Assembly: GCA_039583875.1 (NCBI GenBank)
Contig: CM077163.1
Location: 230,446,646 to 230,510,645 of the forward strand
Length of the DNA: 64,000 bases
Direction: 5' to 3'
DNA from: Platanthera guangdongensis
Taxonomy: Eukaryota > Streptophyta > Magnoliopsida > Asparagales > Orchidaceae
Each line of letters opens with the position of its first letter. Position 1 is the first letter of the stretch. Made by a program: the position numbers and the translations under genes. Positions 30,263-60,332 of the stretch are shown here, piece by piece. The notes beneath the pieces are model-generated. The model had not been told where the DNA came from, made no database searches, and saw nothing but the letters and a program-made list of their open reading frames with translations.

Positions 30263-30270
30263 CGCTAAAC

Positions 30271-30664: not shown

Positions 30665-30888
30665 TGTTGGGTGTGGCCCGCCATCCAGGTGTTGGATGGG
30701 GTGCCTCCCGGGCGCACCCAGGTTGGCTACTAGCATAGGTGCAGAGAAAACTCCACGTACAGTTCAGTGCAAGGGAGTCAGGTTGGCTCCGGGCATGAGT
30801 ACATGGGAGTTTCGGACACAGTTTAAGTACGAGGAGCCGTGCAAACAGTTTGACCGGTCCTGCTAAAATAATATAAAGGAATTGGTAG

Positions 30889-31635
30889 TGTACAACCCCA
30901 TATTCGCTGAGTCAGACCAGGAGTCACCAACAGTCACAATTAGGCTAGCTAGAGGAGTTCTCGCCCTAAAGAAGATCTCGCCCAGGTAGGCGGGAACGCT
31001 TGCGCTAGAGCCAAGCTCCCTCGCCTATAAAGCTCCCCGCGCTCAACGATCGTCGAACCCAGATCGTCGGGCGCAGCCAAATCGTCGAATCCAGATCGTC
31101 GAACGCAACCAACACGGGAACGCTTGCGCTTGCGCCAAGCTCCAATCTCAAAGTAGCCCTCGCATATAAGTAGGCGAGAACGCTTGCGCCGGGCTCTGGA
31201 CAGAAGACTCTCGGCTCAGAGCTCTCGCCGAGTGGGGCCCAGGGCCTTGGGTAAAATGACCTAATTGCCCTCAGGCGAAATTACCCCTATACCCTCAGGA
31301 TAAACAACAGGATTTGGCTATTGGCAGATCAACCAAGGGCATTTCAGTAATCTCAGGTCAGCAAAGGCTATAAATAGACCCATAAGGGCTCCTTGGAAAG
31401 CAGATTTTTCATTATCTTCCAACTTCCAGTGCTTTCTGAGGAGCTCCTAGCCCAGCTTTTGGCTTTGGAGGGGAAGCTCTCAGAGATCTTCCGGGTGTGA
31501 GGTGGGACCTCCCTGCTGAGGCTTTGGGTCAGTCCAGGGACCTTTGAATCTGGTCGAGGGTTGAGGCTTGAGAGAAGTAGGTGTCGGCTGCACCCCTATT
31601 TTGAACTCCCATTGAGGTCATTTTTGGCTTCAACA
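30889..31635 (+). repeat. 5' LTR of the Tat-like element
   Basis: 747 bp, TGTACAACCCCATATTCGC to TTGGCTTCAACA. TATAAATA lies at 31,369-31,376. U3 contains tandem CAGATCGTCGA motifs (about 31,050-31,110) and three copies of a GGGAACGCTTGCGC-like phrase. About twenty single-base differences from the 3' LTR by eye suggest moderate age. Confidence 0.9.
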
Positions 31636-31693
31636 GTTCTGGTGCGGTGAGCGTGGAAAGCAGCTGATACAAGAAAGCCTTAAGTTTTATCCC

Positions 31694-32994
31694 ATGGCTG
31701 GAGGTGAAGGTGAAGGGTCTGGTTCTGGAGGCTCCCCCACCCGGGGAGAGGAAGCGACGAGGAAGATGCTGGATGAATTCAAGCGAGAGGTCCTGCAGAC
31801 CATCAGCTTGGCCTTCTCGGCCCGAAGCGAGTGGGCTACACCTCAGGTTCCGATAGAGGAGGTCCCGCTCTTGGGCGAGAACGCCCCTAGACAGCGCCCG
31901 GGGAAGGAGGTCCTGACGGAGGCTAGCGAGAGGGACGTGGCCGCGTGGGAGCTCTTCCTAGGCCAGCGCCCGGGCAAGGAGGCTTTGACCGATTGGGGTG
32001 AGAGGGAGGCAGCAGTGCGAGAACTCTTCCCCGGGCACGGTCTCGTAGATCGGGCCAGCCAGCCGAGGCCGCGGGACGTGCCATCTCGTCAGGCAGGAGG
32101 CGAGAGCCCTTTCAGCGAGCTTATCATCTCAACTCCGGTACCGGAGGGGTTCCGGGAGCCTGACATGTCCTACTACTCGGGGAAGGATGACTCTGTACAG
32201 CACGTGCAGTGGTTTGAAGATGTCGTTTCGATAAGGCAAATGACGGATGCCTTCAAGTGCTGGCTATTTGCCATCACGTTAAAGGAGAAGGCTCGGGACT
32301 GATTCCACCAGTTGCCAGCAGGGTCGATCTACTGCTTTGAAGATCTGCGGAGAAGTTTCCTGTTGAGGTTCTCAACATCGAAGAAGAGGAAGAAGGAGGA
32401 GGAGTGCCTGTTTGTAGTGAGGCAGAAGCCAGATGAGACACTGGGTCACTATGTCGACCGGTTTCAGGAAGAGATCCTCCTGGTCCAAGAGGTCCCAGGG
32501 TATGCGTTGATGCTCGCCTTTACCCTGGGGCTGAGGCCAGGATTCTTCAGTATGGAGTTGAAAAGAGTGCCCCCCTCTCCTTTGAGGAGCTCATGGAGAG
32601 GGCATCAAAGGAGATAGACTTCGAGAGAGCAAACCCAGCATTCGTTAGGAAGTTGGCCAGGTTGGCGGAGGATGATGTGAAGGAACCTGCAGCGGGAAGG
32701 CAGAGGGAGCCGAGGGAGCAAAGGGAGCAGAGAGAAGAAAGGTGGAGGGAAGAGCCCCGAAGGCAGGGGCAGCAGCAGGGATGGGGGGCCCAGGATCCAA
32801 ACAACCGGTTGGGTTGGAGGCCCCAGGAGGGTCGCCCCCAGGGCCAAGGAGGAGGCTACCAGGGGAGAGATAATCTATGGGAACCCAGGAGGTTCGACCA
32901 ACCAGCATGGAGGCAGGAGCCAAGGGGTCGAGTCCTGCCGGCGCAAGAGGCCATGGAAGTAGGCAGAGGAAGAGGAGCGAGGAGAGGAGTTTGA
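31694..32994 (+). pseudogene. Gag of the Tat-like element, broken
   Basis: Virus-like-particle protein. The frame opens at ATG 31,694 (MAGGEGEGSGSGG) and contains SELIISTPVPEGFREPDM, VQHVQWFEDVVSI and FAITLKEKARD. It then hits TGA at about 32,300, where the intact relative has Trp. It resumes at 32,312 (LRRSFLLRFSTSKKRK, YVDRFQEEIL) and is frameshifted near 32,580-32,610 before a Gln/Arg/Glu-rich tail. Closely related to the intact gag at 54,297-56,408. Confidence 0.88.
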
Positions 32995-33036
32995 GGAGCT
33001 GGGAGAAGAGGAGGAGGAGAAGGAAGAAGGGGTAGG

Positions 33037-33967
33037 GTGACGTTGCTCTTTTGTGACTTCCACCAGGAGGAAGGTCACGCAACAGCCACCTGCCCAGAGT
33101 TCTTAGAAATGAGGGAAGCAAGAGGAGCAGGGAGGCAGGATCCGCCGGTTAGGATCGTAGAAGTACAGCAGGGGGAGGTGGAAGATAGGTGTGAAGACCG
33201 GGTAGACGTGGGGACCCGGGGGGGGGGGAATCAGGGTGATTCATGGAGGAGTGGGGATTGAGGCAACCCGCAAGGGGAGCCTACAAACCATGTACTGAAG
33301 GGGGGTCGCCTCTACCTCCCAGGCTCCCCCACCGGAAGAAAAAATCACCTTCTCATCAGCGGATATGCCGGACTACGAAGTTCCGTTCTGTGACGCCCTG
33401 GTGATCCAGACGGCGGTGGAGAATTTCATGGTCTCAAGGATACTAGTAGACAACGGAAGCTCGGTGAATGTCATCTTCAAGAAGGCCTTCGATGAGATGA
33501 GGGTTGAAGGGAAGAGGATCTTGGCTTCGGATGGACCGCTGTTCGGGTTCTACGGAGAGAGGAAGGAAGTGGAAGGGGGAGTAGTGCTGCACGTGAAGTT
33601 GGGGGGGAGGGGGGGGGGGGGCGTGTCACGGAACTGCAGGTTCGTGATCGTGGACGCCCCAAGCAGCTATAACGCCATCTTTGGGCGTCTGCTCATCAGC
33701 GCCTTTCGCTGCGTACCCTCCTCGTTTCATCAGTGCCTCAAGTTCAACAATGGAGGGGTGCAGGTCAGGGTAAGAGGGGACACGAAGGTGGCGAGACAGT
33801 GCTACATTACGGTGGTCAACACCATATCGTGGATGGCAGAAGCAGAGGAGTTGGAGAAGGAGATGGCGTCACATGAAGAGGTTGTCGGAGAAGAGGAGGT
33901 GAGCCTAGAGGAGGCGAGAGAGATAGCTGAAGAGGAAGTCAGAGGGGAGGAGATTGAGGAGCAGTAG
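33037..33967 (+). pseudogene. Gag zinc-knuckle and aspartic protease region
   Basis: Knuckle-like FCDFHQEEGHATATCPEF at about 33,048-33,105. Protease with active-site variant ILVDNGSSVNVIF near 33,435 and the flap/C-terminal block YNAIFGR. A poly-G expansion near 33,600-33,620 adds residues relative to the intact homologue. Separate frames at 33,037-33,261 and 33,365-33,967 show frameshifts. The enzyme would process Gag-Pol. Confidence 0.85.
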
Positions 33968-33973
33968 GGAGAT

Positions 33974-34513
33974 GTGCAGGAGGACCATAGGGACAAAGAG
34001 CAGGAGAGCCCGGAGGGGGCGATGGAGGTAGAAGGGCAAGAAACAGGAGGAGCTGAGGAAGAGGCCCAGAGGGGCATGGAAGTCGAGCAGCCGCAGGAGG
34101 GGCTGGAAGAGGCAATGGAGATCGAGGAGGAGGTAGGAAGGGAGGAGCTGGAGCTGGAGGAAGAAGCGAGGGTCGGCTGGGAGAAGTCGCGGCTAGAACC
34201 GACCAAGGAAATGGTAGAGATGGAGGTCTTCACCAGCGCAGGGCAGGTGCAAAGGGTGCAGGTCAGCGGGGGCTTGAGTCCCGAGGCCCGGGAGAGAGTG
34301 AGGGCCTGTATTCAAAGCAACATCGATATCTTCGCTTGGACCGCGGTAGACATGTCGGGCATCGAAGCGGATGTGGCCTGCCATCGCCTGAACCTAGACC
34401 CCCGCACTCGCCCCATACGCCAAAAGATGAGAGCCATCGCCACCAAGCTGGAGGAGCCCATCCGCGAAGAGGTCAGGAAGCACATGGAGGCCGGCTTCAT
34501 CTCAGAGATCTAG
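33974..34513 (+). pseudogene. Acidic linker and start of reverse transcriptase
   Basis: A Glu-rich stretch, followed by DIFAWTAVDMSGIEADVACHR-like sequence (broken here to stay short) and RPIRQKMRAIA and EEVRKHMEAGFI. These match the region that precedes the RT fingers in plant Ty3/Gypsy polyproteins. A TAG at 34,511-34,513 interrupts it just before YTGWISNVVMVKK. Confidence 0.8.
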
Positions 34514-35140
34514 TATACAGGCTGGATCTCCAATGTGGTAATGGTTAAAAAAGTGGGTGGTAAATGGAGAATGTGTATTGACTTTTACTTGTTAAAGAAA
34601 TCGTGCCCTAAGGATTGCTACCCCCTGCCTCGGATTGAGGCGCTGGTTGATTCAGCCATCGGTTTTTCTATCATGAGCTTTTTGGATGCTTTTTCAGGTT
34701 ATCACCAGATCCGGATGCACCCTCCCGATGTAAAGGATGTTTCCTTCATCACGAGGGAGGGGTGCTTCAGTTACAAAATAATGCCCTTTGGGTTGAAGAA
34801 CGTAGGGGTTACCTACCAACGCATGATGGATCGGGTCTTCCAAGATTAGAGAGGGAGAAACTTGGAGGTCTATGTTGACGACCTAATGATCAAAAGCAAG
34901 TACGTGGATTCGCACCTAAAAGATCTAGAGGAGACGTTTGCCACCCTGAGGAGGTTTAAGATGGGGCTGAACTCCTTGAAGTGTGTCTTCGGGGCCAGCC
35001 GCGGGAAGTTTCTTGGGCATCTCTTGACTCCGGCAGGGGTGGAGCCTAACCCGGACAAGGTAAAGGCCATCCTGGATTTGGAATCACCTCGCGATGCCAA
35101 GGAGGTCCAGTGTTTGACAGGCAGGCTGGCGGGCGAAGGA
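34514..35140 (+). pseudogene. Reverse transcriptase, truncated
   Basis: RT motifs in order: GGKWRMCIDF, DCYPLPRIEALVD, FLDAFSGYHQI, MPFGLKNVGVTYQRMM and the active site VYVDDLMIKSK near 34,868-34,900. Then CVFGASRGKFLGHLL and AGVEPNPDKVKAI. A TAG lies near 34,847. Coding is cut at about 35,125-35,140 by a deletion into the integrase C-terminus, so thumb, RNase H and the integrase core are missing. Confidence 0.9.
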
Positions 35141-35488
35141 GATGAGACTTGGAGGTTGGAGAATGAAGAGGGGCAACGCCTCTCGCTAGATATGGTGGAA
35201 GAACTGCGGGACGTGGCAGCTATCAGGCAAGAAGAGATCAAGGGGCAGATGGCCAAGTATTTTGATAAGCATGTCAGGGTCAAGCAGTTTACTGAAGGGG
35301 ATCTGGTGCTGAGAAAGGTTGACGCGACAGGAAGGTCGGCTCTCGTGGGCAAGCTCAACCCGAACTGGGAAGGACCGTACATAGTGAAGGAAGCCCTCAG
35401 AACAGGAGGTTATTACCTCCAGGACGTGGAGGGGAGGGCCTTAAGTCACACCTGGAGCGGTGATGACCTAAAATGCTTCTACCCATGA
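35141..35488 (+). pseudogene. Integrase C-terminal remnant
   Basis: In frame with the truncated RT. It contains YFDKHVRVKQFTEGDLVLRK, NPNWEGPYIV and HTWSGDDLKCFYP before the stop at 35,486-35,488, typical of the end of plant Ty3/Gypsy polyproteins. The deletion therefore kept the reading frame. Confidence 0.85.
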
Positions 35489-35599
35489 AAGGGGAAGGAT
35501 GTAACCATGTATCTCAAAAATAAACTTATTATACTACATCAGTTGATTTTCTCTTGAATTATTGTGAAATTTTTATAATAGGATATAATTATGTGTTTT

Positions 35600-36244
35600 A
35601 TGAATACCCCGAGCTCGGCTCGGCCCCAGGTAGACCCGCTGTGCAGACTCTCATCTAGCTGGCAGGTCCGAAGGCTCGCCTGTGGGGGATAGGTTTGGTT
35701 TGAGAACTTCATCGGCACCCCGAGCTCGGCTCGGACCCAGGTAGACCCGCTGCGCAGTCTCTCATCTAGCTGGCAGGTCCGAATGCTCGCCTGTGGGGGA
35801 TAAGTTTGGTTTGAGAACTTCATTGATACCCCGAACTCGGCTCGGCCCCAGGTAGACCCGCTGCGCAGGCTCTCATCTAGCTGGCAAGTCCGAAGGCTCG
35901 CCTATGGGGGATAGGTTTGGTTTGAGAACTTCATCGGCACCCCGAGCTCGGCTCGACCGCAGGTAGACCCGCTGCGCAGGCTCTCATCTAGCTGGCAGGT
36001 CTGAAGGCTCGCCTGTGGGGGATAGGTTTGGTTTGAGAACTTCATCGGCACCCCGAGCTTGGCTCGGCCCCAGGTAGACCCGCTGCGCAGGCTCTCATCT
36101 AGCTGACAGGTCCGAAGGCTTGCCTGTGGGGGATAGGTTTGGTTTGAGAACTTCATCGGCACCCCGAGCTCGGCTCGGCCCTAGGCAGACCCACTGCGCA
36201 GGCTCTCATCTAGCTGGCAGGTCCGAAGGCTCGCCTGGGGGAGG
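35600..36244 (+). repeat. 111-bp tandem array (5.7 copies) in the Tat-like 3' region
   Basis: The phrase CCCCGAGCTCGGCTCGG recurs at 35,607, 35,718, 35,829, 35,940, 36,051 and 36,162, exactly 111 bp apart each time. Each unit contains CTGCGCAGGCTCTCATCTAG followed by CTGGCAG, which can pair as a 7-bp stem with one bulged base around a 12-nt loop. The reverse strand stays open across units because 111 is a multiple of three. I regard those frames as incidental. Confidence 0.95.
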
Positions 36245-36826
36245 GAAGTTTTTGATCATAGGAGACACTCCGACTTGGATGCTCAGAGCAAGGCAAGAAA
36301 CCCACCATGGAATGAAAAAGAGGTGAGGCCCTTCAGGCAGAAGAGGCCTCAGCCAAAGGAGATCTCGGCAGGAAAATCCTCGCCAAAGAGATCTCGCCAA
36401 AGGAATCTCTCGGCGAGAAGACTCCTAACGGTATCTTGGACGGACAGCGAGAGGTGTTGGGCGAAAGCTTCAGACAGTTTGAGCAAGCTAAAGGGGGACG
36501 GCCTCGTCTAAAAGGGCCAGCGAACAATGTTCCCGGCAGACGGTATTCGGCAGAGTGCGGAAGCGAAACGTCTAAGCTCTGGCTCTTTCGGCAGGTTCCC
36601 ACATATCCATCACTAAGGGAGACTACCCTAGGGAGGCCGAGGGCCTCAGCGAAAGCGTGCTTAAGAAGCACTCGGCCACAACAATTGCATAGAGCGCATT
36701 CACAATAAGAACAGGACAATGACTACATTTACAATAAAACATTTACAATGTATTTTATATAATTACAAGTTTAGAGCGTCTCGCTCTTTACACTGAGGCG
36801 AAAAGAAAAGAGAAAAAGGGGGCCCC
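36245..36826. other. Spacer between array and antisense gene
   Basis: Rich in CTCG[G/C]C[A/G]GAGA-like phrases. Convergent ends of the sense and antisense units meet here. No gene supported. The antisense gene's 3' UTR probably lies in it. Confidence 0.45.
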
Positions 36827-38998
36827 TCAGGGAGACAAGCTATACCCCTCAGAGCTCCCGCTTGAACTCTCGCTGGAGCTCTCACCTGAGCTCTCCCCGG
36901 ATGTCTCGCCACCCGCGGGAGGGGATTTCGGGACATCCGAGGGCGGGGTATCAGGTGCGCCCGGGGGCTTCGGGGCAGGCTCGAAGAGCCAGGGGACGAG
37001 CTGTTGAGCGGTAATGATCTTGCCCCTCCCGTCCAGGCATCCGACATCTCACAGCGTCTCCAAGGTCAGCTTGACGGTCGCTTGCGCGTTGGCCTGGAGG
37101 AGCTTGTCGATATCGTAGACGGAGTAATAGCGGCTCTTCAACCTTTCGTCCAGAGGAGGGGGCGCATTCGCCTCCAGGCGCAGGATCTGGTCCCTCAACA
37201 GGACGCTCTCGTATCGCGCCTGGGCCAGCTCCGCGCGAAGCGCCGCGGCTTGAGCGGAATCCTGTATAGCGAGAAGTTAGCATGAAAGAAAAAGAATGAA
37301 GTTTAAATCTGCAGTGACGAGAGCTAGCGTCATGAAAGGTCTCGCTTACCTCTTCCGCCCGACGCGTAGACAGCTGTTGCTTGGCGTCTTCTAGCTCCTT
37401 CTTCAAGGCAGCCGCCTTAGCCACTGCACCCTCCCTGACCTTGAACATATCCTGGAAGTTGCGGTCGATGGTGATGCTCCGGCGAGCACACATATGCGCA
37501 AGCTCTAGCCCGCGCATCAGAGCACGGGTGGAGTCATAAGCCAGGAGCCTGGTGGTCATCCTGTCATAGACGCTGGCATTCTCCCGGCTGTAGAGGTCGT
37601 AGCCCAGGGAGAAGGCCTCGCTGGTGACCTCATCTCGCTCCGCCCAGCTGGGGAGAAGAGATGAGATTGAGACCTTATTGATATCAGGGTCCCACTGAAG
37701 GAGCAGTTTGTTCTCCGCGCCAAGACACTTTGTGCTGAGACCAAAATTGCGGTGGCTCCACGGCACCTCTCCAGGCGGAGACTGGCCGGAGGTCCCAGCG
37801 GAGTCTCCCTCGTCATCTGCTCCAGTAGGGGCCGGGGGGTTCTCGACAGGGGCCTCGGCGCCACCTCTGGTGGCCGCGATCTCGCTGACGACCTGCAGGA
37901 TCTCTTCAAAAGAGCGGCCCGCAGCGAGAGGTTGATAGGGCAGCACCACAATGGCTTTACCCTTCTCGGCGTCAGTTATCTTGGGCCTCTTGATCGGTGG
38001 GGGCAGAGGGATGCCGGGCTTTCGCTTCTCGGCGCCAGTTGAAGGAGGTGGGGCCAGCTCGTCCCGGCAAGCTTACGTCGCGGCCTTTGCGAGAGCCAGC
38101 GGGTCTTTCACAGGTTGGCTCCAAGCAGCGTGAGCCTCGTCAAAGGGTTCGTGTAGGGGGGTCTCACGCTCTCCTGCGAAAGCGACAACACTCAGTTCTA
38201 ACCTTAAGGAAGGGAATAACGAGACAAAGGCGAGACCTTACTTTCGCCCGGAGGCACGGGGAGAAGTGAATAAACGTCTCGCCGGAGGAAGTGGACGTCG
38301 AAGTCCTTGGTTCCGAAAAACTCAAGGAGGGCGCTCTCGCGCGAGCCCAAGGAGGGCGGCTTGTAGGCGGCGTCCTCATATTGAATGGGCGCGAGAGGCA
38401 CGTTCCCGAAATCGCCGGAAATGAAAATAAACTTCTCGCCCCAGTGGTGGTGTTTGTTGGCGAGACCGATGGTCTTGAGCAGCTGCCCTAAAAAGAAGAC
38501 CACCACTCCTTTGGCGCGGAAGGTGAACAACTTCCGGAAGATCAGAAGGCTGAACTCGATCCTCTCGGATCGCATGTGGCAGATGAAAGCCACCAGAATC
38601 GTGACTGAGTTGGGATTCAGTTGAGCGGGAACCACTCCGTAATACCGGAGGGTCTGGCACATCTCGGGCCACAGCGGGAGGCGGAAGCCCACCTCAAAGT
38701 GCTCAAGGAGGATGGCGAGCTCCCCCTCCCCCGCGCTGTTTACCTTATCATGGTTGTCGGGGTTCTGTGCGGTGAAGCGGGCGAGAACGTAGCGAGCTTG
38801 GGTCAGGTTGAACTCGTCCATGGTAAGGGTGCAGGAGGGAAACAGGTGCTTCTGAAAGGCTTCCACGCAATTTGAACATCCCTCGCTTCCGCCTGACATC
38901 GTGTTGAAGTTGTAGGCGAGGTCTTTAGGAGGGAGGCGAGAGCGAGAACTGTGCGAGAATGGGAAGAGGAGGCGAAAGCAAGCGAGAGCTTTTGACAA
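36827..38998 (-). pseudogene. Antisense gene 1: PF04195-like (Transposase_28) protein with coiled coil
   Basis: Three exons: 38,242-38,998, 37,350-38,173 and 36,827-37,261, all with GT/AG ends. They sum to 2,016 nt (671 codons plus stop). Exon 1 shows FEVGFRLPLWPEMCQTL, YYGVVPAQLNPNSV and FSLLIFRKLFTF, the pattern of the 'putative gypsy type transposon' family. Exon 2 holds a Pro-rich part and a long helix (AALKKELEDAKQQL). Exon 3 continues the coil (AALRAELAQARY) and ends SSEGYSLSP. Two stops (TAA near 38,085, TGA near 37,050) break it. The start could be 38,998 or an internal ATG at 38,899. Function in the element is unknown. Confidence 0.75.
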
Positions 38999-39063
38999 AC
39001 CGCGAAAGCGACAAGAGAAAAGAGAGGATTCGAATCGGAGAAATAAATGTAGTAGGGACCCTC

Positions 39064-39071
39064 TATTTATA
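39064..39071 (-). promoter_or_regulatory. TATA box for antisense gene 1
   Basis: TATAAATA on the minus strand (context CCTATAAATAGAGGG), 66 bp upstream of the ATG at 38,998. The same core is used in the LTR promoters here. Confidence 0.6.
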
Positions 39072-39426
39072 GGAAGCCATGATCATCATGACTGTTTTCA
39101 AAAAGGCGGCGGGGGTACAGCCGTCACGCCCTAAGTCGGCGGCGCTTTGTTTTCCTGCCCAAGTTTGATAGTGAATGACAGATGATTAACATAACATTAT
39201 GAGTTGACACACGACAAATAAAATATGCGGAAGCAGAGTCACTCTCGCTGAGCGAGAGCTTTGTAAAGAATAGTAATAATAACAAGCAGCATTATTACTC
39301 CCGCCAAGCGAGAGCTAAATAGAAAGTAACAAAATTAATATCAAAGTTATCAGTTAAGACATGAAATTAACGGGGTACATCGGAGAAGGGGAAGGCCGGG
39401 GGCAAGGAAGGGTGAGGTCTCGCCAG
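39072..39426. other. Antisense intergenic region
   Basis: Lies between antisense gene 2 and the TATA box of gene 1. Probably holds the 3' UTR of gene 2 and upstream elements of gene 1. No gene seen. Confidence 0.45.
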
Positions 39427-40763
39427 TCAGTAGGGTTCCCACCGCCATCGTCCTCGCTCCCACTGCCTGGTCCTCGGTGGCGCCTGCGGGTTGAAGTAGG
39501 ACGACAAGACGGTGCATCCCAGGTTGATCCGGCGAGACAGGTCTCGGATCCACGCGATGCACCTTTCAGGAGACGACCCCGCGGTAGGCCCACCTGACCG
39601 ATCTGTCTCGTCGATGAAGTAATCCCGCTCCAGAGCCTCCAGCTTCTTCTCCACCGACTGGCGGAACTCTCTCGTCACTGTGTCGTGGGCCCGCTCCCGT
39701 CGGATAAGCTCTGACAGGACAGCGACAACCTTCTTCCCCCGTCTTTTAGCGCTCCCGGCGCTGGTCAAGATCTCCTCCATCTCGTCAGATGAGGGGAAGG
39801 GGGAGCTCTCGCCGTCATCCCCCTCTCTGCCTTCGTCTTCTTCATCTTCTTCATCCTCTCCATCAGCTCCCGACCGCGAGCCCAGATCCCCTGACAAAAG
39901 ATTTCCATGGTTATGGCGAGATTTAAGCGAGACCGTTATGGACATACCGCATACCTGCAGTATGGAAAGAACCCCCGGTCGACGACAGGCGAGAAGGCCC
40001 AGCCCCCCCCCCCCTCAGTTCTAAAGAGTAGGTGGATCGGCTTCCCTTTTCCCGGGAGGAAGATTGTGCGAGTGGTGATCTCGGCTTGGTCGGAAGCAGG
40101 GGGAGAGTTATCCACTCCCGCGGGATGGCTGGCATCCTGGGGAGCTGCAGAAGATTCGGCAGCCATTCCTCTCGCCGGTATGGATGAATCAACCACGAGG
40201 GCATGCTGATTTGCAGCCCTTGCTTCGTTCTCCCGGGTAGCGAGACCCGGCTGGGCGGAAGCTGGCGCTGCGGGAAGACAATTCAGCGTTCTGAGATGTA
40301 AGTTAAGAGCGAGAATGGAAAAGTTACCTGCAGTTCTCGGGTCAGGCGGAGGAGCCATCTCCGAGACCCGCGGTTGGTCCTCAAGGGGGCGAGATGATGG
40401 GTCTAAGGGTTTCCGCGGGGACCTGGCGATGTCGGGAACCGTTTCCTGCGAGAAGTATCACGTCAGCTACAAAGCAACTAGTAGATTCAATGATTAGCGA
40501 ATCAGACATACCTTATGCGGAGAGGGATCATTCGTGCGGCTTGGGGTCGGGGTAGGTGGGTTCCTATTCTCATGGGGCAGATCTCGCTGGACCGCCTTCG
40601 CATTCTTCTTTTTCTTCTTGGGCTGAGGAGGCTCGACAGCTGACGACTTTCTCGCCAATCAGGGGGCAACCAAGGCGCTATTAGCCTTGGCTCGTGCCTG
40701 TGCCGCATCAATACGGTCTTAGAGATCCTGCGAAAGCGGTTTGTCGGCGCGCTTGGAAGGCAT
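39427..40763 (-). pseudogene. Antisense gene 2: basic/proline-rich/acidic coiled-coil protein, unknown function
   Basis: Four apparent exons: 40,512-40,763, 40,328-40,445, 39,955-40,267 and 39,427-39,890. The start MPSKRADKPLSQD leads into a basic patch (PKKKKKNAKA) resembling a nuclear localisation signal. Pro/Ala-rich exons follow, then an acidic block (DGEDEEDEEDEGREGDD) and a helix-rich end (FRQSVEKKLEALERDYF) before the TGA at 39,427-39,429. Exon 1 has two stops, and the join of exons 3 and 4 is off by one base next to a 12-base G run (C on the + strand near 40,003-40,014). I recognise no family. It may partner gene 1. Confidence 0.6.
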
Positions 40764-40836
40764 CGCGTGAGGAGGCGAGAACACAGGCGAAGAATGACGA
40801 TTCAAGGGCAGAATTATGGCCGTCTCTCAACACATA

Positions 40837-40844
40837 TATTTATA
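40837..40844 (-). promoter_or_regulatory. TATA box for antisense gene 2
   Basis: TATAAATA on the minus strand (context GGCTATAAATATATG), 74 bp upstream of the ATG at 40,763, a spacing like that of antisense gene 1. Confidence 0.55.
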
Positions 40845-40940
40845 GCCACCGTACGGCCCACCGAAAGAATCCCTGATGTTGATACGTGCTCAGCGAATAT
40901 TTATGGGTTGGATGTGTCTTTTCGAGCGCAGAGCTAGCTC

Positions 40941-40957
40941 AAAAAGAGCGGGGATTC
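40941..40957 (+). other. Polypurine tract of the Tat-like element
   Basis: AAAAAGAGCGGGGATTC directly precedes the 3' LTR. The younger element at 59,033-59,049 has almost the same tract. Confidence 0.75.
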
Positions 40958-41705
40958 TGTACAACCCCATATTCGCTGAGTCAGACCAGGAGTCACCAAC
41001 AGTCACAATTAGGCTAGCAAGAGGAGTTCTCGCCCTAAAGAAGATCTCGCCCAAGTAGGCGGGAACGCTTGCGCTAGAGCCAAGCTCCCTCGCCTACAAA
41101 TCTCCCCGCGCTCGACGATCGTCGAACCCAGATCGTCGGGCGCAGCCAAATCGTCGAATCCAGATCGTCGAACGCAGCCAACGCGGGAACGCTTGCGCTT
41201 GCGCCAAGCTCCAATCTCAAAGTAGCTCTCGCATATAAGTAGGCGAGAACGCTTGCGCCGGGCTCTGGACAGAAGACTCTCGGCTCAGAGCTCTCGCCGA
41301 GTGGGGCCCAGGGCCTTGGGTAAAATGACATAATTGCCCTCAGGCGAAATTACTCCTATACCCTCAGGATAAACAGCGGGATTTGGCTATTGGCAGATCA
41401 ACCAAGGGCATTTTAGTAATCTCAGGTCAGCAAAGGCTATAAATAGACCCATAAGGGCTCCTTGGAAAGTAGGTTTTTTCATTATCTTCCAACTTCCAGT
41501 GCTTTCTGAGGAGCTCCTAGCCTAGCTTTTGGATTTGGAGGAGAAGCTCTCAGAGATCTTGCGGGTGTGAGGTGGGACCTCCCTGCTGAGGCTTTGGGTC
41601 AGTCCAGGGACCTTTGAATCTGGTCGAGGGTTGAGGCTTGAGAGAAGTAGGTGTCGGCTGCACCCCTATTTTGAACTCCCGTTGAGGTCATTTTTTGCTT
41701 CAACA
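40958..41705 (+). repeat. 3' LTR of the Tat-like element
   Basis: 748 bp, same ends as the 5' LTR, followed by the GGTAG duplication. TATAAATA at about 41,439-41,446. Confidence 0.9.
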
Positions 41706-41954
41706 GGTAGCGCCCTTCCTAACACTCTGGGATTTTGGGAGAGTTGGTAGGCATCATTCCTAACAGTGGTATCAGAGGGAGGTTGAGGTCATGGGTTCGA
41801 TCCCCCTGGATGGCGTTCCATGGGGAGTTTGTTGGGTGTGGCCCGCCATCCAGGTGTTGGATGGGGTTCCTCCCGGGCGCACCCGGGTTGGCTCCTGGCA
41901 TGGGTGCATGGAAACTCCATGGTACGGTGACCCCCCTAGATGGCGTTCCAGGGG

Positions 41955-48989: not shown

Positions 48990-49046
48990 ATTCACCCCGA
49001 ATAGAACATGGGGCAAAGTCATCATTTTCGTGAAAGTCATAATCTG

Positions 49047-52957: not shown

Positions 52958-54241
52958 TGTACAACCCCGTATTCGCCCCGGTATAGTTTTAAGCTTTTGG
53001 GAGATTTTGCACTCTCGGTGGCCAATTTTGGCTCTAGCTCGGAAACATACTAGTAGGGGGAGGAAAAATCTACCTCCCCCCAGTGGCCCTCTTTTGAGGG
53101 GCGGGTGCGGCAAGTTGGCTAACACCAGCCCCCGTCCCGATAGGTGCTTGGCGGCCTGGTGGGGCGAGACCGGCCGGGGGCCGGGGTCTCGCCCCCGCTC
53201 CTTCTAGCCTGGCGGCCTGGTGGGGCGAGACCGGCCGGGGGCCGGGGTCTCGCCCTTGCTCCTTCTAGCCTGGCGGCCTGGTGGGGCGAGACCGGCCGGG
53301 GGCCGGGGTCTCGCCCCTGCTCCTTCTAGCCTGGCGGCCTGGTGGGGCGAGACCGGCCGGGGGCCGGGGTCTCGCCCCTGCTCCTTCTAGCCTGGCGGCC
53401 TGGTGGGGCGAGACCGGCCGGGGGCCGGGGTCTCGCCCCTGCTCCTTCTAGCCTGGCGGCCTGGTGGGGCGAGACCGGCCGGGGGCCGGGGTCTCGCCCC
53501 TGCTCCTTCTAGCCTGGCGGCCTGGTGGGGCGAGACCGGCCGGGGGCCGGGGTCTCGCCCCTGCTCCTTCTAGCCTGGCAGCCTGGTGGGGCGAGACTGG
53601 TCGGGGGCCGGGGTCTCGCCCCTGCTCCTTCTAGCCTGGCGACCTGGTGGGGCGAGACCGGCCGGGGGCCGGGGTCTCGCCCCTGCCCCTTCTAGCCTGG
53701 CGGCCTGGTGGGGCGAGACCGGCCGGGGGCCGGGGTCTCGCCCCTGCTCCTTCTAGCCTGGCGGCCTGGTGGGGCGAGACCGGCCGGGGGCCGGGGTCTC
53801 GCCCTTGCCCCCCTGCAGTTTTACCTTCTTGCCCTCGGGGGGAATTCCCTCTTTACCCCCCGGCGTGGCTGTTTTCTATTGGCCCGAGGCCTTTTGGCCG
53901 TAAGGGTATTTCGGTCTTTTTACCCCCAGGACTTGGAAAAACTATAAATAGACCCCCTTGGGTGCCTTGGAGAGGGGGCTTTTTCTTAGCTTCCTCCTCC
54001 CTTAGCTTCTTCTTGGTAGAGTGGAGAGAGCTCTCCAAGGCGCCTAGCCTAGCCCTTTGGTAAGGGAGGGGAAGAGCTCAGGTAGCCTTTCGGGTGTGAG
54101 GTGGGACCTCCGTGCTAGAGCCGAGGGTCTGTTCATAGTCTCCTAAGTCTCCGGTCCGTGACGTTCTCTAGAGTGTAGTAGGTGTGAGGTCACCCCTTTC
54201 AGGGACCCCGAACTCCACAGAGGTCAATTTTGGCTTCAACA
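52958..54241 (+). repeat. 5' LTR with eleven 61-bp hairpin repeats
   Basis: From about 53,146 to 53,812, a 61-bp unit repeats about eleven times. Each unit holds GGGGCGAGACC and GGTCTCGCCCC as inverted arms around a G/C-rich centre. The array sits in U3, ending about 130 bp upstream of TATAAATA (53,943-53,950). Confidence 0.93.
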
Positions 54242-54296
54242 CTTTGGTGCGGTGAGCGTGGAGAGTGACCAGCACAGAAGATCTCAGGAGAGTGTC

Positions 54297-56408
54297 ATGA
54301 CGGGAGGTCAGGGAGGTAGTGATGACCTCGGCGAGCTCCCTAGCTCGGGACCCTTTGTAGGGAGGCAGGAATTCATGGCCTCCATCCAGGGTATCATGGA
54401 GATGCTGCGAAGCATTGCTCCTCAGGGTGGCAGCTCCACCCCGACCCCCCAGGAGCTAGCTCCCCCCCTCGACGAGTCGACTCCCAGGGGTCTAGGCGAG
54501 ATGACCCCAGCGGGGGGAGAAGGAAGCGCACCAGGAAGAAGGCCCGGGAAGGAGAGGATGGGAGATGGGGTCGAGCGAGACCTCACTGGCCGGGAGTTGT
54601 TCTCTAGCCCGGCGAGTGCCAACCTCTCAGGCGAGCAGGCTGCGCGAGTGGAGGTGGCGAGACCACCCCTTAGGGGGTCACCTTTCAGCGAGCTGATCAT
54701 CTCAGCACCCGTTCCCGAGGGATTCAGAGAGCCAGACATGGCTTACTATACCGGGAAGGATGACCCCGTTCAGCACCTGCAGTGGTTCGAGGACGCCGTC
54801 TCCATCAGGCCGATGACGGATGCCTTCAAGTGTCGCCTCTTTGCGATCACGTTGAAGGAGAAGGCAAGGGACTGGTTCCATCAACTCCCTCCACGGTCGA
54901 TCTATGGGTTCGAGGACTTGAGCCGGAGCTTCCAGCTTCGCTTCTCCACCTCCAAGAAGCGGAAGAGGAGCCCTGAGTCCATCTTCCTGATAAGGCAAGG
55001 GGCCGAGGAGTCGCTGGCCCGTTACGTTGACAGGTTCCAAGAGGAGATCCTGGAGGTCCAGGAGATGCCAGGGTATGCTCTCCAGATGGCCTTCACCGTT
55101 GGGCTGAAGGAGGGCTTCTTCAAGATGAGCTTGACCCGGAAGGCCCCCCTTTCCTTCGAGGAGCTGATGGAAAGGGCGGCAGAGGAGATTGCCATGGAGG
55201 CGGCCAACCCGACATTTGTCAAGAAGTTGGCAAAGCTGACAGAGGCAGAGTCGAAGGAGCAAGGAGGCTCGAGACCTCAGGAAGGAAGAAGGAGAGAGGA
55301 GCGAAGAGCTCAAGAGGGTCCGGAACCAGGTTGGAGGCAGCAGGGAGGACCCGCTCAGGGCCCGGGAAGAGGTTACGCCCATGATGGGGGAAACTTCCAT
55401 GGGGGCCAAGGAAGGTTCAACTTCCAGAGGCAAGCCCCTAGGCAGCTCCTCCCCCCACCACAGCAAGCGATGGAGATTGGTCGAAGGGAGAGGAGGAACC
55501 GCCAGGGAAGGAGAAGGGTCAGGATAGAGTTGCCGTACTGTGACTTCCACCAGGTGGAGGGGCACGCCACGGCTACCTGCCCCGAGTTCCTGGAAGTGAG
55601 GGGGGCGAGAGGTCCTGCCCAGCCACAGCCACCGGTGCGGGTTGAAGAGGTTCTGCCCCAAGGAGGGGGTGATGATGTTTGTGAGGACCGGGTCGATGTC
55701 GGACCCCGAGGCGGTATAGCGGTGATCCATGGTGGAGTGGGGATTGAGGCCACTCGGAAGGCAAGCCTCCATGTCATGTACCGAAGGAGCGTCGCCTCAA
55801 CCTCCCAGACCCCGCCCCAGGAGGAGAAGATCACCTTCTCGATGAAGGACCTACCGGATCATGAGGATCCGTTCTGTGATGCGCTGGTCATCCAGACGGC
55901 CATCGAGGGATACAGCGTCTCCCGAATCTTAGTTGACAACGGCAGCTCTGTCAACGTCATTTTCAGGAAGGCGTTTGAGGAGATGAAGGTAGAGCCAAGG
56001 AGGGTGTTGGCCTCAGACGGACCCCTGTTCGGATTCTCAGGAGAAAGGAAGGAGGTCGAAGGTGGAGTAGGACTCCAAGTAAAGTTGGGAGGGGTCTCAA
56101 GAAACTGCCGGTTCGTCATTGTGGACGCTCCAAGCAGCTATAACGCCATCTTCGGAAGGCCCCTCATCAGCGCCTTCCGTTGCGTGCCATCTTCCTTCCA
56201 CCAATGCATCAAGTTCAGCTCCGGAGGGATCCAGGTCAGAGTTAAGGGAGACTCTAGGATGGCAAGACAGTGTTATGTCACGGCCGTCAACACCATCTCT
56301 TGGTTGGCCAAGGCAGAGGAGATGGATAAGATCATGGAGAGCCTAAGCAGGATGGAAGTGTCCGGCGAGCAGGAAGCGGATGGCGACCACCAGGCCCAGA
56401 CCCCCTGA
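54297..56408 (+). CDS. Gag-protease of the young TR-GAG element, intact
   Basis: An uninterrupted 703-codon frame from ATG 54,297 (MTGGQGGSDD) to TGA 56,406-56,408. The N-terminal part is disordered and Gly/Pro-rich. The retrotransposon-gag domain (about residues 130-310) has MAYYTGKDDPVQHLQWFED, FAITLKEKARDWFHQLP and LRFSTSKKRK. A Gln/Arg-rich linker leads to the knuckle-like YCDFHQVEGHATATC (about 415). An aspartic-protease fold follows, with active-site variant ILVDNGSSVNVIF near residue 543 and SSYNAIFGRPLISAFR. No RT, RNase H or integrase follows, so replication and insertion need an autonomous relative. The frame is open upstream to 54,252, but no ATG lies there. Confidence 0.92.
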   Translation: MTGGQGGSDDLGELPSSGPFVGRQEFMASIQGIMEMLRSIAPQGGSSTPTPQELAPPLDESTPRGLGEMTPAGGEGSAPGRRPGKERMGDGVERDLTGRELFSSPASANLSGEQAARVEVARPPLRGSPFSELIISAPVPEGFREPDMAYYTGKDDPVQHLQWFEDAVSIRPMTDAFKCRLFAITLKEKARDWFHQLPPRSIYGFEDLSRSFQLRFSTSKKRKRSPESIFLIRQGAEESLARYVDRFQEEILEVQEMPGYALQMAFTVGLKEGFFKMSLTRKAPLSFEELMERAAEEIAMEAANPTFVKKLAKLTEAESKEQGGSRPQEGRRREERRAQEGPEPGWRQQGGPAQGPGRGYAHDGGNFHGGQGRFNFQRQAPRQLLPPPQQAMEIGRRERRNRQGRRRVRIELPYCDFHQVEGHATATCPEFLEVRGARGPAQPQPPVRVEEVLPQGGGDDVCEDRVDVGPRGGIAVIHGGVGIEATRKASLHVMYRRSVASTSQTPPQEEKITFSMKDLPDHEDPFCDALVIQTAIEGYSVSRILVDNGSSVNVIFRKAFEEMKVEPRRVLASDGPLFGFSGERKEVEGGVGLQVKLGGVSRNCRFVIVDAPSSYNAIFGRPLISAFRCVPSSFHQCIKFSSGGIQVRVKGDSRMARQCYVTAVNTISWLAKAEEMDKIMESLSRMEVSGEQEADGDHQAQTP

Positions 56409-56570
56409 AGAAGCCTCGTCCCGGTAGAGTCCTGTATTTTTCTTATGTTGTATTGAGTCCAGCCCCCGACCAGCTGAGTCGGGGGGGTCATGTAACCCAT
56501 CTTTTTCCCCATTTGAGGATGTAAGATTTGCTAAGGACTAATTGAGATGCTTAGTTCTTTTGCTCCGAGA
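56409..56570 (+). other. Spacer after gag-pro
   Basis: Short non-coding region before the tandem array. No RT remnant is detectable. Confidence 0.5.
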
Positions 56571-58960
56571 TGGTCCCGCTGCCCAGGCTCTCACTAGCTG
56601 GGCAGGGACGATGGTACCTCTCGTTGATGCATAGTTGTCTCACCTCGAGATGGATTCCGCTGCCAGACTCTCACCTAGCTGGCAGGGCAGGTTGATCTCT
56701 CGGAGGGTGGGAAGGTCTCACCTCGGGATGGATTCCGCTGCCAGGCTCTCACCTAGCTGGCAGGGCAGGTTGATCTCTCGGAGGGTGGGAAGGTCTCACC
56801 TCGGGATGGATTCCGCTGCCAGGCTCTCACCAAGCTGGCAGGGCAGGTTGATCTCTCGGAGGGTGGGTAGGTCTCACCTCAGGATAGATTCCGCTGTCAG
56901 GCTCTCACCTAGCTGGCAGGGCGGGTTGATCTCTCGGAGGGTGGGTAGGTCTCACCTCGGGATAGATTCCGCTGCCAGGCTCTCACCTAGCTGACAGGGC
57001 GGGTTGATCTCTCGGAGGGTGGAAAGGTCTCACCTCGGGATGGATTCCGCTGCCAGGCTCTCACCTAGCTGGCAGGGCAGGTTGATCTCTCGGAGGGTGG
57101 GAAGGTCTCACCTCGGGATGGATTCCGCCGCCAGGCTCTCACCTAGCTGGCAGGGCAGGTTGATCTCTCGGAGGGTGGGAAGGTCTCACCTCGGGATGGA
57201 TTCCGCTGCCAGGCTCTCACTTAGCTGGCAGGGCAGGTTGATCTCTCGGAGGGTGGGTAGGTCTCACCTCGGGATGGATTCCGCTGCCAGGCTCTCACCT
57301 AGCTGGCAGGGCAGGTTGATCTCTCGGAGGGTGGGAAGGTCTCACCTCGGGATGGATTCCGCTGTCAGGCTCTCACCTAGCTGGCAGGGCAGGTTGATCT
57401 CTCGGAGGGTGGGAAGGTCTCACCTCGGGATGGATTCCGCTGCCAGGCTCTCACCTAGCTGGCAGGGCAGGTTGATCTCTCGGAGGGTGAGAAGGTCTCA
57501 CCTCGAGATGGATTCCGCTGCCAGGCTCTCACCTAGCTGGCGGGGCAGGTTGATCTCTCGGAAGGTGGGAAGGCTCACCTCGGGATGGATTCCGCTGCCA
57601 GGCTCTTACCTAGCTGGCAGGGCAGGTTGATCTCTCGGAGGGTGGGTAGGTCTCACCTCGGGATAGATTCCGCTGCCAGGCTCTCACCTAGCTGGCAGGG
57701 CGGGTTGATCTCTCGGAGGGTGGGTAGGTCTCACCTCGGGATAGATTCCGCTGCCAGGCTCTCACCTAGCTGGCAGGGCGGGTTGATCTCTCGGAGGGTG
57801 GAAAGGTCTCACCTCGGGATGGATTCCGCTGCCAGGCTCTCACCTAGCTGGCAGGGCAGGTTGATCTCTCGGAGGGTGGGAAGGTCTCACCTCGGGATGG
57901 ATTCCGCTGCCAGGCTCTCACCTAGCTGGCAGGGCAGGTTGATCTCTCGGAGGGTGGGAAGGTCTCACCTCGGGATGGATTCCGCTGCCAGGCTCTCACT
58001 TAGCTGGCAGGGCAGGTTGATCTCTCGGAGGGTGGGTAGGTCTCACCTCGGGATGTATTCCGCTGCCAGGCTCTCACCTAGCTGGCAGGGCAGGTTGATC
58101 TCTCGGAGGGTGGGAAGGTCTCACCTCGGGATGGATTCCGCTGCCAGGCTCTCACCTAGCTGGCAGGGCAGGTTGATCTCTCGGAGGGTGGGAAGGTCTC
58201 ACCTCGGGATGGATTCCGCTGCCAGGCTCTCACCTAGCTGGCAGGGCAGGTTGATCTCTCGGAGGGTGAGAAGGTCTCACCTCGAGATGGATTCCGCTGC
58301 CAGGCTCTCACCTAGCTGGCGGGGCAGGTTGATCTCTCGGAAGGTGGGAAGGCTCACCTCGGGATAGATTCCGCTGCCAGGCTCTCACTTAGCTGGCAGG
58401 GCAGGTTGATCTCTCGGAGGGTGGGTAGGTCTCACCTCGGGATGGATTCCGCTGCCAGGCTCTCACCTAGCTGGCAGGGCAGGTTGATCTCTCGGAGGGT
58501 GGGAAGGTCTCACCTCGGGATGGATTCCGCTGCCAGGCTCTCACCTAGCTGGCAGGGCAGGTTGATCTCTCGGAGGGTGGGAAGGTCTCACCTCGGGATG
58601 GATTCCGCTGCCAGGCTCTCACCTAGCTGGCAGGGCAGGTTGATCTCTCGGAGGGTGAGAAGGTCTCACCTCGAGATGGATTCCGCTGCCAGGCTCTCAC
58701 CTAGCTGGCGGGGCAGGTTGACCTCTCGGAAGGTGGGAAGGCTCACCTCGGGATGGATTCCGCTGCCAGGCTCTCACCTAGCTGGCAGGGCAGGTTGATC
58801 TCTCGTGGAAGCCAAGTCCTTTGCTCCGAGATGGATTCCGCTGTCAGGCTCTCACCTAGCTGGCAGGGCTGGTTGATCTCTCGTGGAAACCAAGTTTGTT
58901 ACCCAGAGAAGCTCTCGCCACCTAGGCTCCCATAGCTGGCGTGCCAGGTTGACTCCCTGG
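56571..58960 (+). repeat. 78-bp tandem array (about 28 copies) with a hairpin core
   Basis: The unit is typified by CACCTCGGGATGGATTCCGC, then CTGCCAGGCTCTCACCTAG and CTGGCAGGGCAGG. Period 78 bp, with some 77-bp units. Each unit can form CTGCCAG/CTGGCAG around a 12-nt loop. Marginal units at 56,578-56,606 and 58,915-58,945 are diverged but keep pairing (CTGCCCAG/CTGGGCAG; CGCCA/TGGCG). A marked variant block (GGTGAGAAGGTCTCACCTCG) recurs at 57,487, 58,266 and 58,655, showing higher-order duplication. Confidence 0.95.
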
Positions 58961-59032
58961 AGAGGCGTGCAAGGAAATTGCACTCGGCGAATACGTTGGT
59001 TGGACATTTCTTTCCGAGTTTGTGCCAACCTC

Positions 59033-59049
59033 GAAAAGAGCGGGGATTG
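59033..59049 (+). other. Polypurine tract of the TR-GAG element
   Basis: GAAAAGAGCGGGGATTG directly before the 3' LTR. Confidence 0.75.
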
Positions 59050-60332
59050 TGTACAACCCCGTATTCGCCCCGGTATAGTTTTAAGCTTTTGGGAGATTTT
59101 GCACTCTCGGTGGCCAATTTTGGCTCTAGCTCGGAAACATACTAGTAGGGGGAGGAAAAATCTACCTCCCCCCAGTGGCCCTCTTTTGAGGGGCGGGTGC
59201 GGCAAGTTGGCTAACACCAGCCCCCGTCCCGATAGGTGCTTGGCGGCCTGGTGGGGCGAGACCGGCCGGGGGCCGGGGTCTCGCCCCTGCTCCTTCTAGC
59301 CTGGCGGCCTGGTGGGGCGAGACCGGCCGGGGGCCGGGGTCTCGCCCTTGCTCCTTCTAGACTGGCGGCCTGGTGGGGCGAGACCGGCCGGGGGCCGGGG
59401 TCTCGCCCCTGCTCCTTCTAGCCTGGCGGCCTGGTGGGGCGAGACCGGCCGGGGGCCGGGGTCTCGCCCCTGCTCCTTCTAGCCTGGCGGCCTGGTGGGG
59501 CGAGACCGGCCGGGGGCCGGGGTCTCGCCCCTGCTCCTTCTAGCCTGGCGGCCTGGTGGGGCGAGACCGGCCGGGGGCCGGGGTCTCGCCCCTGCTCCTT
59601 CTAGCCTGGCGGCCTGGTGGGGCGAGACCGGCCGGGGGCCGGGGTCTCGCCCCTGCTCCTTCTAGCCTGGCAGCCTGGTGGGGCGAGACCGGTCGGGGGC
59701 CGGGGTCTCGCCCCTGCTCCTTCTAGCCTGGCGACCTGGTGGGGCGAGACCGGCCGGGGGCCGGGGTCTCGCCCCTGCCCCTTCTAGCCTGGCGGCCTGG
59801 TCGGGCGAGACCGGCCGGGGGCCGGGGTCTCGCCCCTGCTCCTTCTAGCCTGGCGGCCTGGTGGGGCGAGACCGGCCGGGGGCCGGGGTCTCGCCCTTGC
59901 CCCCCTGCAGTTTTACCTTCTTGCCCTCGGGGGGAATTCCCTCTTTACCCCCCGGCGTGGCTGTTTTCTATTGGCCCGAGGCCTTTTGGCCGTAAGGGTA
60001 TTTCGGTCTTTTTACCCCCAGGACTTGGAAAAACTATAAATAGACCCCCTTGGGTGCCTTGGAGAGGGGCTTTTTCTTAGCTTCCTCCTCCCTTAGCTTC
60101 TTCTTGGTAGAGTGGAGAGAGCTCTCCAAGGCGCCTAGCCTAGCCCTTTGGTAAGGGAGGGGAAGAGCTCAGGTAGCCTTCCGGGTGTGAGGTGGGACCT
60201 CCGTGCTAGAGCCGAGGGTCTGTTCATAGTCTCCTAAGTCTCCGGTCCGTGACGTTCTCTAGAGTGTAGTAGGTGTGAGGTCACCCCTTTCAGGGACCCC
60301 GAACTCCACAGAGGTCAATTTTGGCTTCAACA
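59050..60332 (+). repeat. 3' LTR of the TR-GAG element
   Basis: Same structure as the 5' LTR, including eleven 61-bp units (about 59,239-59,905) and TATAAATA near 60,035-60,042. Confidence 0.93.

What the first reader, a model, noticed from the sequence alone, without database searches (positions are those of the whole stretch)
36827..40844. Two separate spliced antisense genes, each with its own TATA box, inside one Tat-like retrotransposon
Opposite to gag-pol, two multi-exon units lie in a row: 40,763 to 39,427 (four exons) and 38,998 to 36,827 (three exons). Each has TATAAATA 66-74 bp upstream of its first ATG. Exon-intron ends of gene 1 are all GT/AG and sum to a multiple of three. Gene 1 matches the PF04195-like antisense ORF known for Tat-clade elements. 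Gene 2 (basic patch, Pro-rich middle, acidic block, coiled coil) matches nothing I recognise. A second antisense gene with an independent promoter is unusual and might encode a partner, silencing suppressor or host-interaction factor. Both copies here carry stops, so intact relatives are needed.
Basis: partly seen in the sequence, partly recalled or inferred. Interest (0 to 1): 0.88.

Follow-up and report, generated by a model that had tools for sequence, protein, structure and literature searches.

The report
Two spliced backwards genes in retrotransposon
A young, partly broken plant jumping element of the Retand type, probably in an orchid, carries two separate spliced genes on its backward strand, one of a known kind and one newly traced here, together with dozens of copies of one six-letter DNA word that may be the landing site of a regulatory protein.

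Summary
The element (30,889-41,705; LTRs 97% alike, TSD GGTAG) is Retand-like, with an internally deleted pol and two multi-exon antisense genes before the 3' LTR. The PF04195/TRP28 gene is gene 2 (38,899-36,827), not gene 1. Gene 1 (40,763-39,427) has no Pfam domain above cut-off; three Platanthera gene models (303-380 aa) are relatives and together support its three introns. Its product has a KKKKK patch, an acidic block and a coiled coil. Each gene has a TATAAATA box, the only two on that strand of the element; gene 2's ends 165 bp before its first ATG. Both genes carry stops here. Two antisense ORFs in Retand elements are in print; my paper searches showed no description of gene 1.

A younger relative in which neither gene was found (52,958-60,332) carries it as an 11-unit array in each LTR. 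I propose nuclear regulators acting through TCTCGC. A Copia LTR with a different dispersed hexamer keeps a host-factor rival alive. No transcript or binding evidence was available.

The parts
30889..31635 (+). 5' LTR of element A (TGTACA...CAACA), TATAAATA at 31369, four TCTCGC/GCGAGA sites upstream of it
   Evidence: TSD GGTAG at 30884-30888
31694..35488 (+). gag-pol remnants, broken into several frames; gag and RT recognisable, RT joined to what looks like the integrase C-terminal tail (recalled); no RNase H or integrase core match among the 7 gag-pol ORFs scanned
35606..36241 (+). tandem array, 111 bp x 5.7, between pol and the antisense genes; no TCTCGC
39064..39071 (-). TATAAATA of gene 2 (context CCTATAAATAGAGG)
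38242..38899 (-). gene 2 exon 1, starts at ATG 38899, holds the PF04195 (TRP28) domain
37350..38173 (-). gene 2 exon 2 (one premature stop)
36827..37261 (-). gene 2 exon 3 (one premature stop; rest of the helical part and an acidic/serine C-terminus)
40837..40844 (-). TATAAATA of gene 1 (context GGCTATAAATATATG), 114 bp from the 3' LTR border
40512..40763 (-). gene 1 exon 1 (two premature stops), N-terminal helix and KKKKK patch
40328..40445 (-). gene 1 exon 2
39955..40267 (-). gene 1 exon 3, frame broken at a G run near 40010
39427..39890 (-). gene 1 exon 4, acidic block, coiled coil, WRW C-terminus
36351..40957 (.). antisense gene region with 40 dispersed TCTCGC/GCGAGA sites (expected 4.5)
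40958..41705 (+). 3' LTR of element A, five TCTCGC/GCGAGA sites; TSD GGTAG at 41706-41710
52958..60332 (+). element B, younger related element with a gag-protease frame (gag above Pfam cut-off, aspartyl protease below it); no tblastn hit to either antisense gene; TSD TGCAT
53149..53808 (.). 61-bp x 10.8 array in the 5' LTR of element B, each unit with TCTCGC as an inverted pair, ending 135 bp before the LTR TATAAATA (53943); same array in the 3' LTR at 59241-59900

Best explanation
Element A is a Retand-like Ty3/gypsy retrotransposon with an internally deleted pol. It carries two separate antisense transcription units between pol and the 3' LTR. Gene 2 is the known TRP28 (PF04195) accessory gene with three exons. 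Gene 1 is a second, four-exon accessory gene, found so far only in Platanthera gene models. Both products look like nuclear, coiled-coil proteins. Most likely mechanism (inferred): one or both act as sequence-specific regulators of their own element family. They would be recruited to the TCTCGC sites in the LTR promoter region, the gag start and the antisense genes, and would activate or keep open the chromatin of the LTR and antisense promoters. Related copies without the genes, such as element B, would be served in trans because they keep, and have amplified, the site. Shown here: gene structures, homology, TATA boxes, motif enrichment and its amplification in B. Inferred: transcription, nuclear entry, DNA binding, regulation.
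For: PF04195 in gene 2 and in all six relatives P0002-P0007. Gene 1 relatives P0001, P0008, P0009, whose joints together match the exon model. If neutral, 39-50% aa identity would imply about 13-18 stops over both lineages by a crude estimate; the relatives' models are open, though gene models are chosen for openness. P0007 begins with a stretch that scores above all 993 shuffles on a gene 1 exon 1 profile (15.4 vs 11.2 bits; also above 300 of 300 shuffles), in front of a TRP28 protein, so the order gene 1 then gene 2 may recur in another family. K[KR].[KR] patch in 4 of 4 gene 1 proteins (window's included) and 4 of 6 gene 2 relatives. TCTCGC: 20 vs 1.5 in noncoding parts of the antisense region (0 of 2000 shuffles), 19 vs 4.4 in exon pieces under synonymous-codon shuffles (0 of 2000), 3 vs 2.0 in the rest of gag-pol. 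39 of 40 sites have independent flanks. 18 one-letter variants reach at most z 3.7 against 17.4. Element B: 22 sites in each LTR array, upstream of its TATA.
Against: No transcript, binding or localisation data. A Ty1/Copia element in the same window has 23 GTCCGC in a 1,630-nt LTR and none in 4,247 nt of its internal parts; neither antisense gene has a match there, so dispersed family-specific hexamers do not need these proteins. With arrays counted once, TCTCGC is not among the top 8 hexamers of element B. Sites of A and B are mostly not at aligned positions: 0 of 5 in the gag start (62% identity) and 1 of 4 in the LTR (56% identity, poor alignment). The P0007 N-terminus does not match gene 1's exon 4 part (79 of 300 shuffles as good). 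The structure model of gene 2 is too poor to show a DNA-binding fold (mean pLDDT 41). Only one copy of the motif-bearing antisense region could be read, because the genome search did not complete.
Confidence: 0.4

Rival explanations
1. The two antisense genes are ordinary Retand accessory genes of unknown role, and TCTCGC is a binding site for a host transcription factor or chromatin factor that the family recruits as enhancer sites. The antisense proteins do not bind it.
For: The Copia LTR with a different dispersed hexamer (23 GTCCGC) and no match to these genes. The LTR sites of A and the arrays of B lie upstream of the LTR TATA, as expected of U3 enhancers. Host MYB-type repeats in U3 of tobacco elements are known (recalled).
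Against: In element A the sites are densest in antisense introns (about 20 per kb) and in the gene 1-gene 2 interval (15 per kb), less so in the LTRs (5-7 per kb), and they also lie in exons (6-7 per kb).
Confidence: 0.35
2. Genes 1 and 2 are one long antisense transcription unit with alternative splicing, or alternative promoters, rather than two genes.
For: Gene model P0007 joins a gene 1-like start to a TRP28 protein.
Against: Separate TATAAATA boxes in front of each; no upstream ATG in either leader as taken from about 30 nt after the box; gene 1 has its own stop, and 2 of 3 relatives (P0001, P0008) end at the same place, while P0009 departs earlier. P0007 is a prediction, not a transcript.
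Confidence: 0.12
3. The antisense units no longer work through protein; antisense RNA makes dsRNA that tunes or silences the element.
For: Stops in this copy; proposed for such ORFs in PMC7264820 (passages).
Against: Open frames in Platanthera models at 37-77% identity to this copy, hard to keep without selection on protein.
Confidence: 0.08

Closest known systems
Retand-lineage elements with antisense TRP28 (PF04195) ORFs (Vicient 2025, PMC11963269; parts 1-3 of 5 read)
   Same: LTR size, pol-3'LTR region about 5.5 kb, tandem array after pol, antisense TRP28 gene, further antisense ORFs, non-autonomous forms
   Different: The paper treats uninterrupted ORFs; in the parts read I saw no exon models, no separate promoters, no gene 1-like family and no dispersed motif
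Retand-2 of Silene latifolia (Kejnovsky 2006; paper not held, known from passages in PMC7264820 and PMC11728184 and from recall)
   Same: Two additional ORFs, ORF3/4, ORF4 with transposase 28; recalled as both antisense between pol and the right LTR
   Different: Whether ORF3 is homologous to gene 1 could not be tested
Grande gene23 of maize (Gomez-Orte 2013; not held, known from PMC7264820 passages)
   Same: Antisense accessory gene with own promoter; nuclear product
   Different: One gene described; here two in a row
VANC anti-silencing proteins of Arabidopsis VANDAL transposons (Hosaka 2017, PMC5735166, Results section read; PMC10398659, passages)
   Same: A short motif dense in introns, intergenic and terminal parts of its own element, differing between families and expanding as tandem repeats
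   Different: VANDALs are DNA transposons; VANC carries DUF1985/DUF287, not found here; VANC motifs are arrayed in one orientation, here both; VANC binding and demethylation were shown, here nothing is

Membership tests
Retand lineage (Tat clade, Ty3/gypsy) | LTRs TG..CA with 5-bp target duplication and gag/RT of retrotransposon type | tested here: met
   LTRs 747/748 bp, 97% identical, TSD GGTAG; Retrotrans_gag and RVT_1 above cut-off
[quoted passage not shown]
   PF04195 E 7.1e-12 on the minus strand; last pol-frame ORF ends at 35,488, LTR begins at 40,958
Retand lineage (Tat clade, Ty3/gypsy) | RT placed in the Retand clade; additional RNase H between RNase H and integrase | not tested
   No RT tree made; no RNase H or integrase core match in the ORFs scanned of this copy
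TRP28 (PF04195) antisense gene | domain above Pfam gathering score, antisense to pol | tested here: met
   45.8 bits vs cut-off 26.2, gene 2 only
TRP28 (PF04195) antisense gene | gene 1 belongs to the same protein family | tested here: not met
   No PF04195 in gene 1 exons 2-4 or in P0001, P0008, P0009; profile comparison with the gene 2 family, probability 0.4%
VANC anti-silencing system | DUF1985/DUF287 protein | tested here: not met
   Pfam scans of all ten proteins P0001-P0010 list neither at E up to 1
VANC anti-silencing system | family-specific short motif dense in noncoding parts of own element | tested here: met
   20 vs 1.5 in 1,543 nt noncoding; 0 GTCCGC in A and B, 1 TCTCGC in the Copia LTR; only this window could be compared
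VANC anti-silencing system | motifs arrayed in one orientation at high density | tested here: not met
   16 plus and 24 minus sites in the antisense region; inverted pairs in element B
VANC anti-silencing system | protein binds the motif and removes DNA methylation | not testable with these tools
   needs EMSA/ChIP and bisulfite data
Grande gene23-type gene | transcribed from its own antisense promoter; nuclear protein | not testable with these tools
   TATAAATA and NLS-like patches only

The most novel reading that the evidence does not exclude
The antisense genes of this Retand family encode a two-protein, sequence-specific trans-acting system that binds TCTCGC sites sown through the family's promoters, introns and exons, and frees or activates its members. 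Gene-less partners live off it by amplifying the site in their LTRs. This would be a VANC-like or Tax-like self-recognition system in an LTR retrotransposon and would give antisense accessory genes a function.
Probability: 0.25. Interest if true: 0.85.

Novelty: new variant of a known kind. Interest (0 to 1): 0.55.

Why it matters
The role of the antisense genes found in nearly all recently active Retand elements (97% of clusters with TRP28, PMC11963269) is unknown. A candidate cis site present 57 times in one element, plus a relative without the genes that has multiplied it upstream of its promoter, turns that question into a binding assay. Gene 1 adds a second gene with its own TATA box and with relatives in two Platanthera genomes, and the exon models show that counting only unspliced ORFs understates these genes.

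Tried and rejected
Rejected: gene 1 as the PF04195 gene; 38,998 as gene 2's start (a TTG); gene 1 exons summing to a multiple of three; gene 1 as a duplicate of gene 2; the PDB match of the gene 1 profile to U2B'' (E 0.0036), taken as a low-complexity Lys-rich match; the gene 2 profile's PDB match (lipase, E 0.11); weak Pfam matches below cut-off (POTRA1_3_Toc75 in gene 2; Asp_Glu_race and Amelogenin in P0001 and Phage_scaffold in P0007; Leu_zip in P0005); TCTCGC as a codon, composition or duplication effect.

Led nowhere: structure models (gene 1 relative P0008, mean pLDDT 54, long helices 12-36, 272-326 and 334-359; gene 2 relative P0003, mean pLDDT 41), so no fold search was run. Viral contigs, gene 2 profile only: 14 pattern stretches, none confirmed. 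Phage records, gene 2 exon 1 stretch only: no match. tRNA scan: none. The own-genome search was unreachable each time, so copy number, dN/dS and motif counts in other copies are missing. Kejnovsky 2006, Steinbauerova 2011 and Gomez-Orte 2013 are not held.
Full report
Setting. The finding lies in an LTR retrotransposon at 30,889-41,705. Its LTRs (30,889-31,635 and 40,958-41,705) differ at 21 of 748 aligned sites, about 1.1 Myr at a recalled plant rate, and are flanked by the 5-bp duplication GGTAG. The plus strand holds gag and reverse transcriptase pieces in several frames. RT runs into what I take, from recall, for the integrase tail; the seven gag-pol ORFs scanned show no RNase H or integrase core. 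A 111-bp tandem array follows pol. The next 4.6 kb up to the 3' LTR hold the two antisense units. All proteins found by the three searches, for both genes, are from two Platanthera species, so the host is probably an orchid; this is an inference, as no genome name was available.

Gene structures. Gene 1: exons 40,763-40,512, 40,445-40,328, 40,267-39,955 and 39,890-39,427. Gene 2: exons 38,899-38,242, 38,173-37,350 and 37,261-36,827. All five introns are GT..AG. For gene 2, Platanthera models P0005, P0006 and P0007 splice intron 1 at the same joint, while P0002, P0003 and P0004 read through it; P0003 splices intron 2 as predicted here, while P0002 and P0004 stop there. For gene 1, P0009 follows exons 1-3, with gaps where introns 1 and 2 lie, and then departs; P0001 lacks the first joints but carries the exon 3-4 joint and exon 4; P0008 runs from the start to the C-terminus. 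P0001, P0008 and P0009 show that exon 3 ends in a different frame from the one in which it starts in this copy, so the copy has a frame break at a G run, besides two stops. Gene 2 has two stops. Open relatives exist.

Which gene is which. Pfam puts PF04195 in gene 2, exon 1 (45.8 bits, cut-off 26.2), and in all six gene 2 relatives; gene 1 exons 2-4 and P0001, P0008, P0009 show nothing above cut-off. The gene 1 and gene 2 families are unrelated by profile comparison. Gene 1 found one relative in a single-sequence search (P0001, E 2.5e-49) and three further proteins with a profile (P0008 2e-68, P0009 4.5e-20, P0010 7.9e-3), all Platanthera. P0010 is a galacturonosyltransferase model with what looks like a piece of exon 3 inside it. 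These searches need exact words shared with the query and, scored only the roughly 8,000 candidates sharing most words, so distant plants may be missed. The P0008 model has an N-terminal helix (pLDDT about 90 over residues 11-30), a long disordered middle and a coiled-coil-like helix. Its residues 231-262 hold 18 acidic residues of 32, and a K[KR].[KR] patch is present in 4 of 4 gene 1 proteins (window's included) and 4 of 6 gene 2 relatives.

Separate promoters. TATAAATA occurs four times on the minus strand of 64 kb and twice in the element, in front of the two genes; the LTR's own promoter has the same octamer (31,369), and so does element B's LTR (53,943). The boxes end 74 and 165 bp before the first ATGs, and neither leader, taken from about 30 nt after the box, has an earlier ATG. 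This supports two units. Against it, model P0007 starts with a gene 1-like stretch joined to a TRP28 protein, which might be one transcript or a prediction artefact; either way it hints that the gene order recurs. Its stretch matches exon 1 only, not the exon 4 part.

The motif. TCTCGC/GCGAGA is the most over-represented hexamer of gag-pol plus antisense region (48 vs 6.8, z 16) and of the antisense region (40 vs 4.5). By part, observed vs expected: gene 1 introns 4 vs 0.17, gene 2 introns 3 vs 0.23, interval between genes (gene 2 leader included) 8 vs 0.48, gene 2 downstream flank 4 vs 0.42, gene 1 leader 1 vs 0.21 (not significant), gene 1 exons 8 vs 1.4, gene 2 exons 12 vs 2.3, LTRs 4 vs 0.54 and 5 vs 0.69, gag start 5 vs 0.73, rest of gag-pol 3 vs 2.0 (not significant), array 0 vs 0.5. 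Synonymous-codon shuffles of exon pieces give 19 vs 4.4 (maximum 10 in 2000). Of 18 one-letter variants none exceeds z 3.7. The following base is C or T in 50 of 57 sites. 39 of 40 sites have unrelated flanks. The rest of the window, outside both elements, has 9 vs 17 expected.

Element B. At 52,958-60,332 lies a related element (two gag-pol pieces 73% identical in DNA), LTRs 5 mismatches in 1,283, TSD TGCAT, a 721-codon frame with gag (above cut-off) and aspartyl protease (below it), a 78-bp array, and no tblastn match to either antisense gene. Each LTR has a 61-bp unit repeated 10.8 times with TCTCGC as an inverted pair, 22 sites per LTR, the 5' array ending 135 bp upstream of its TATA. Five further sites lie elsewhere, three of them in the gag start (3 vs 0.59, 10 of 500 shuffles as high). 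None of A's five gag-start sites aligns with a site of B; in a poor LTR alignment one of four does. When the array is counted once, TCTCGC does not rank among B's top eight hexamers.

A result that cuts both ways. A Ty1/Copia element (LTR-like repeats 49,046-50,675 and 62,361 to the window end) has its own dispersed word, GTCCGC: 23 in one LTR, 0 in 4,247 nt of its internal parts, 0 in A and B. In the segment scan, TCTCGC and GTCCGC stand out (independent-site z 13-20); the other segments' best words reach z 2.8-9.4. Different families having different words recalls VANC targets in Arabidopsis. But neither antisense gene has a match in the Copia, so host factors could explain both.

Reading. 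Gene 2 is a TRP28 accessory gene of a known kind. Gene 1 is a second accessory gene, newly delineated here. The proposal that they regulate the family through TCTCGC is an inference with moderate support. Vicient (PMC11963269) reports a prediction that TRP28 binds DNA. VANC shows that a plant transposon can encode a protein that recognises a short word sown through its own noncoding DNA (PMC5735166). A young relative in which the genes were not found and the site is amplified fits a trans-acting factor, from the element or from the host. The refuting tests are given in the next-steps field.

Noticed in passing
49046-50675 and 62361-64000: Ty1/Copia LTR-like repeats with a dispersed hexamer GTCCGC (23 in one LTR, none in the internal parts examined); the base before it is A or T in 46 of 50 sites of 46071-52957 and 60334-64000.
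   Followed up: partly
52958-60332: Young non-autonomous Retand-like element inserted in the Copia element; its 78-bp x 28.8 array 56637-58883 shares a stretch with the 111-bp array of element A.
   Followed up: partly
53149-53808 and 59241-59900: 61-bp tandem array in both LTRs with a GC-rich near-palindrome around the TCTCGC pair.
   Followed up: yes
39243-39257: Short palindrome of two TCTCGC sites in opposite orientation, 9 bp apart, between gene 1 and gene 2, upstream of gene 2's TATA.
   Followed up: no
13822-32249: Hexamer CGGTTC over-represented in several segments (up to 12 independent sites vs 1.5 expected); partly repeats.
   Followed up: no
28406-28975: hAT-type transposase fragment (hAT-like RNase-H domain) upstream of the element.
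   Followed up: no
P0010 (Platanthera guangdongensis model): A putative galacturonosyltransferase gene model contains what looks like a piece of gene 1 exon 3, probably an inserted element swallowed by the model.
   Followed up: no
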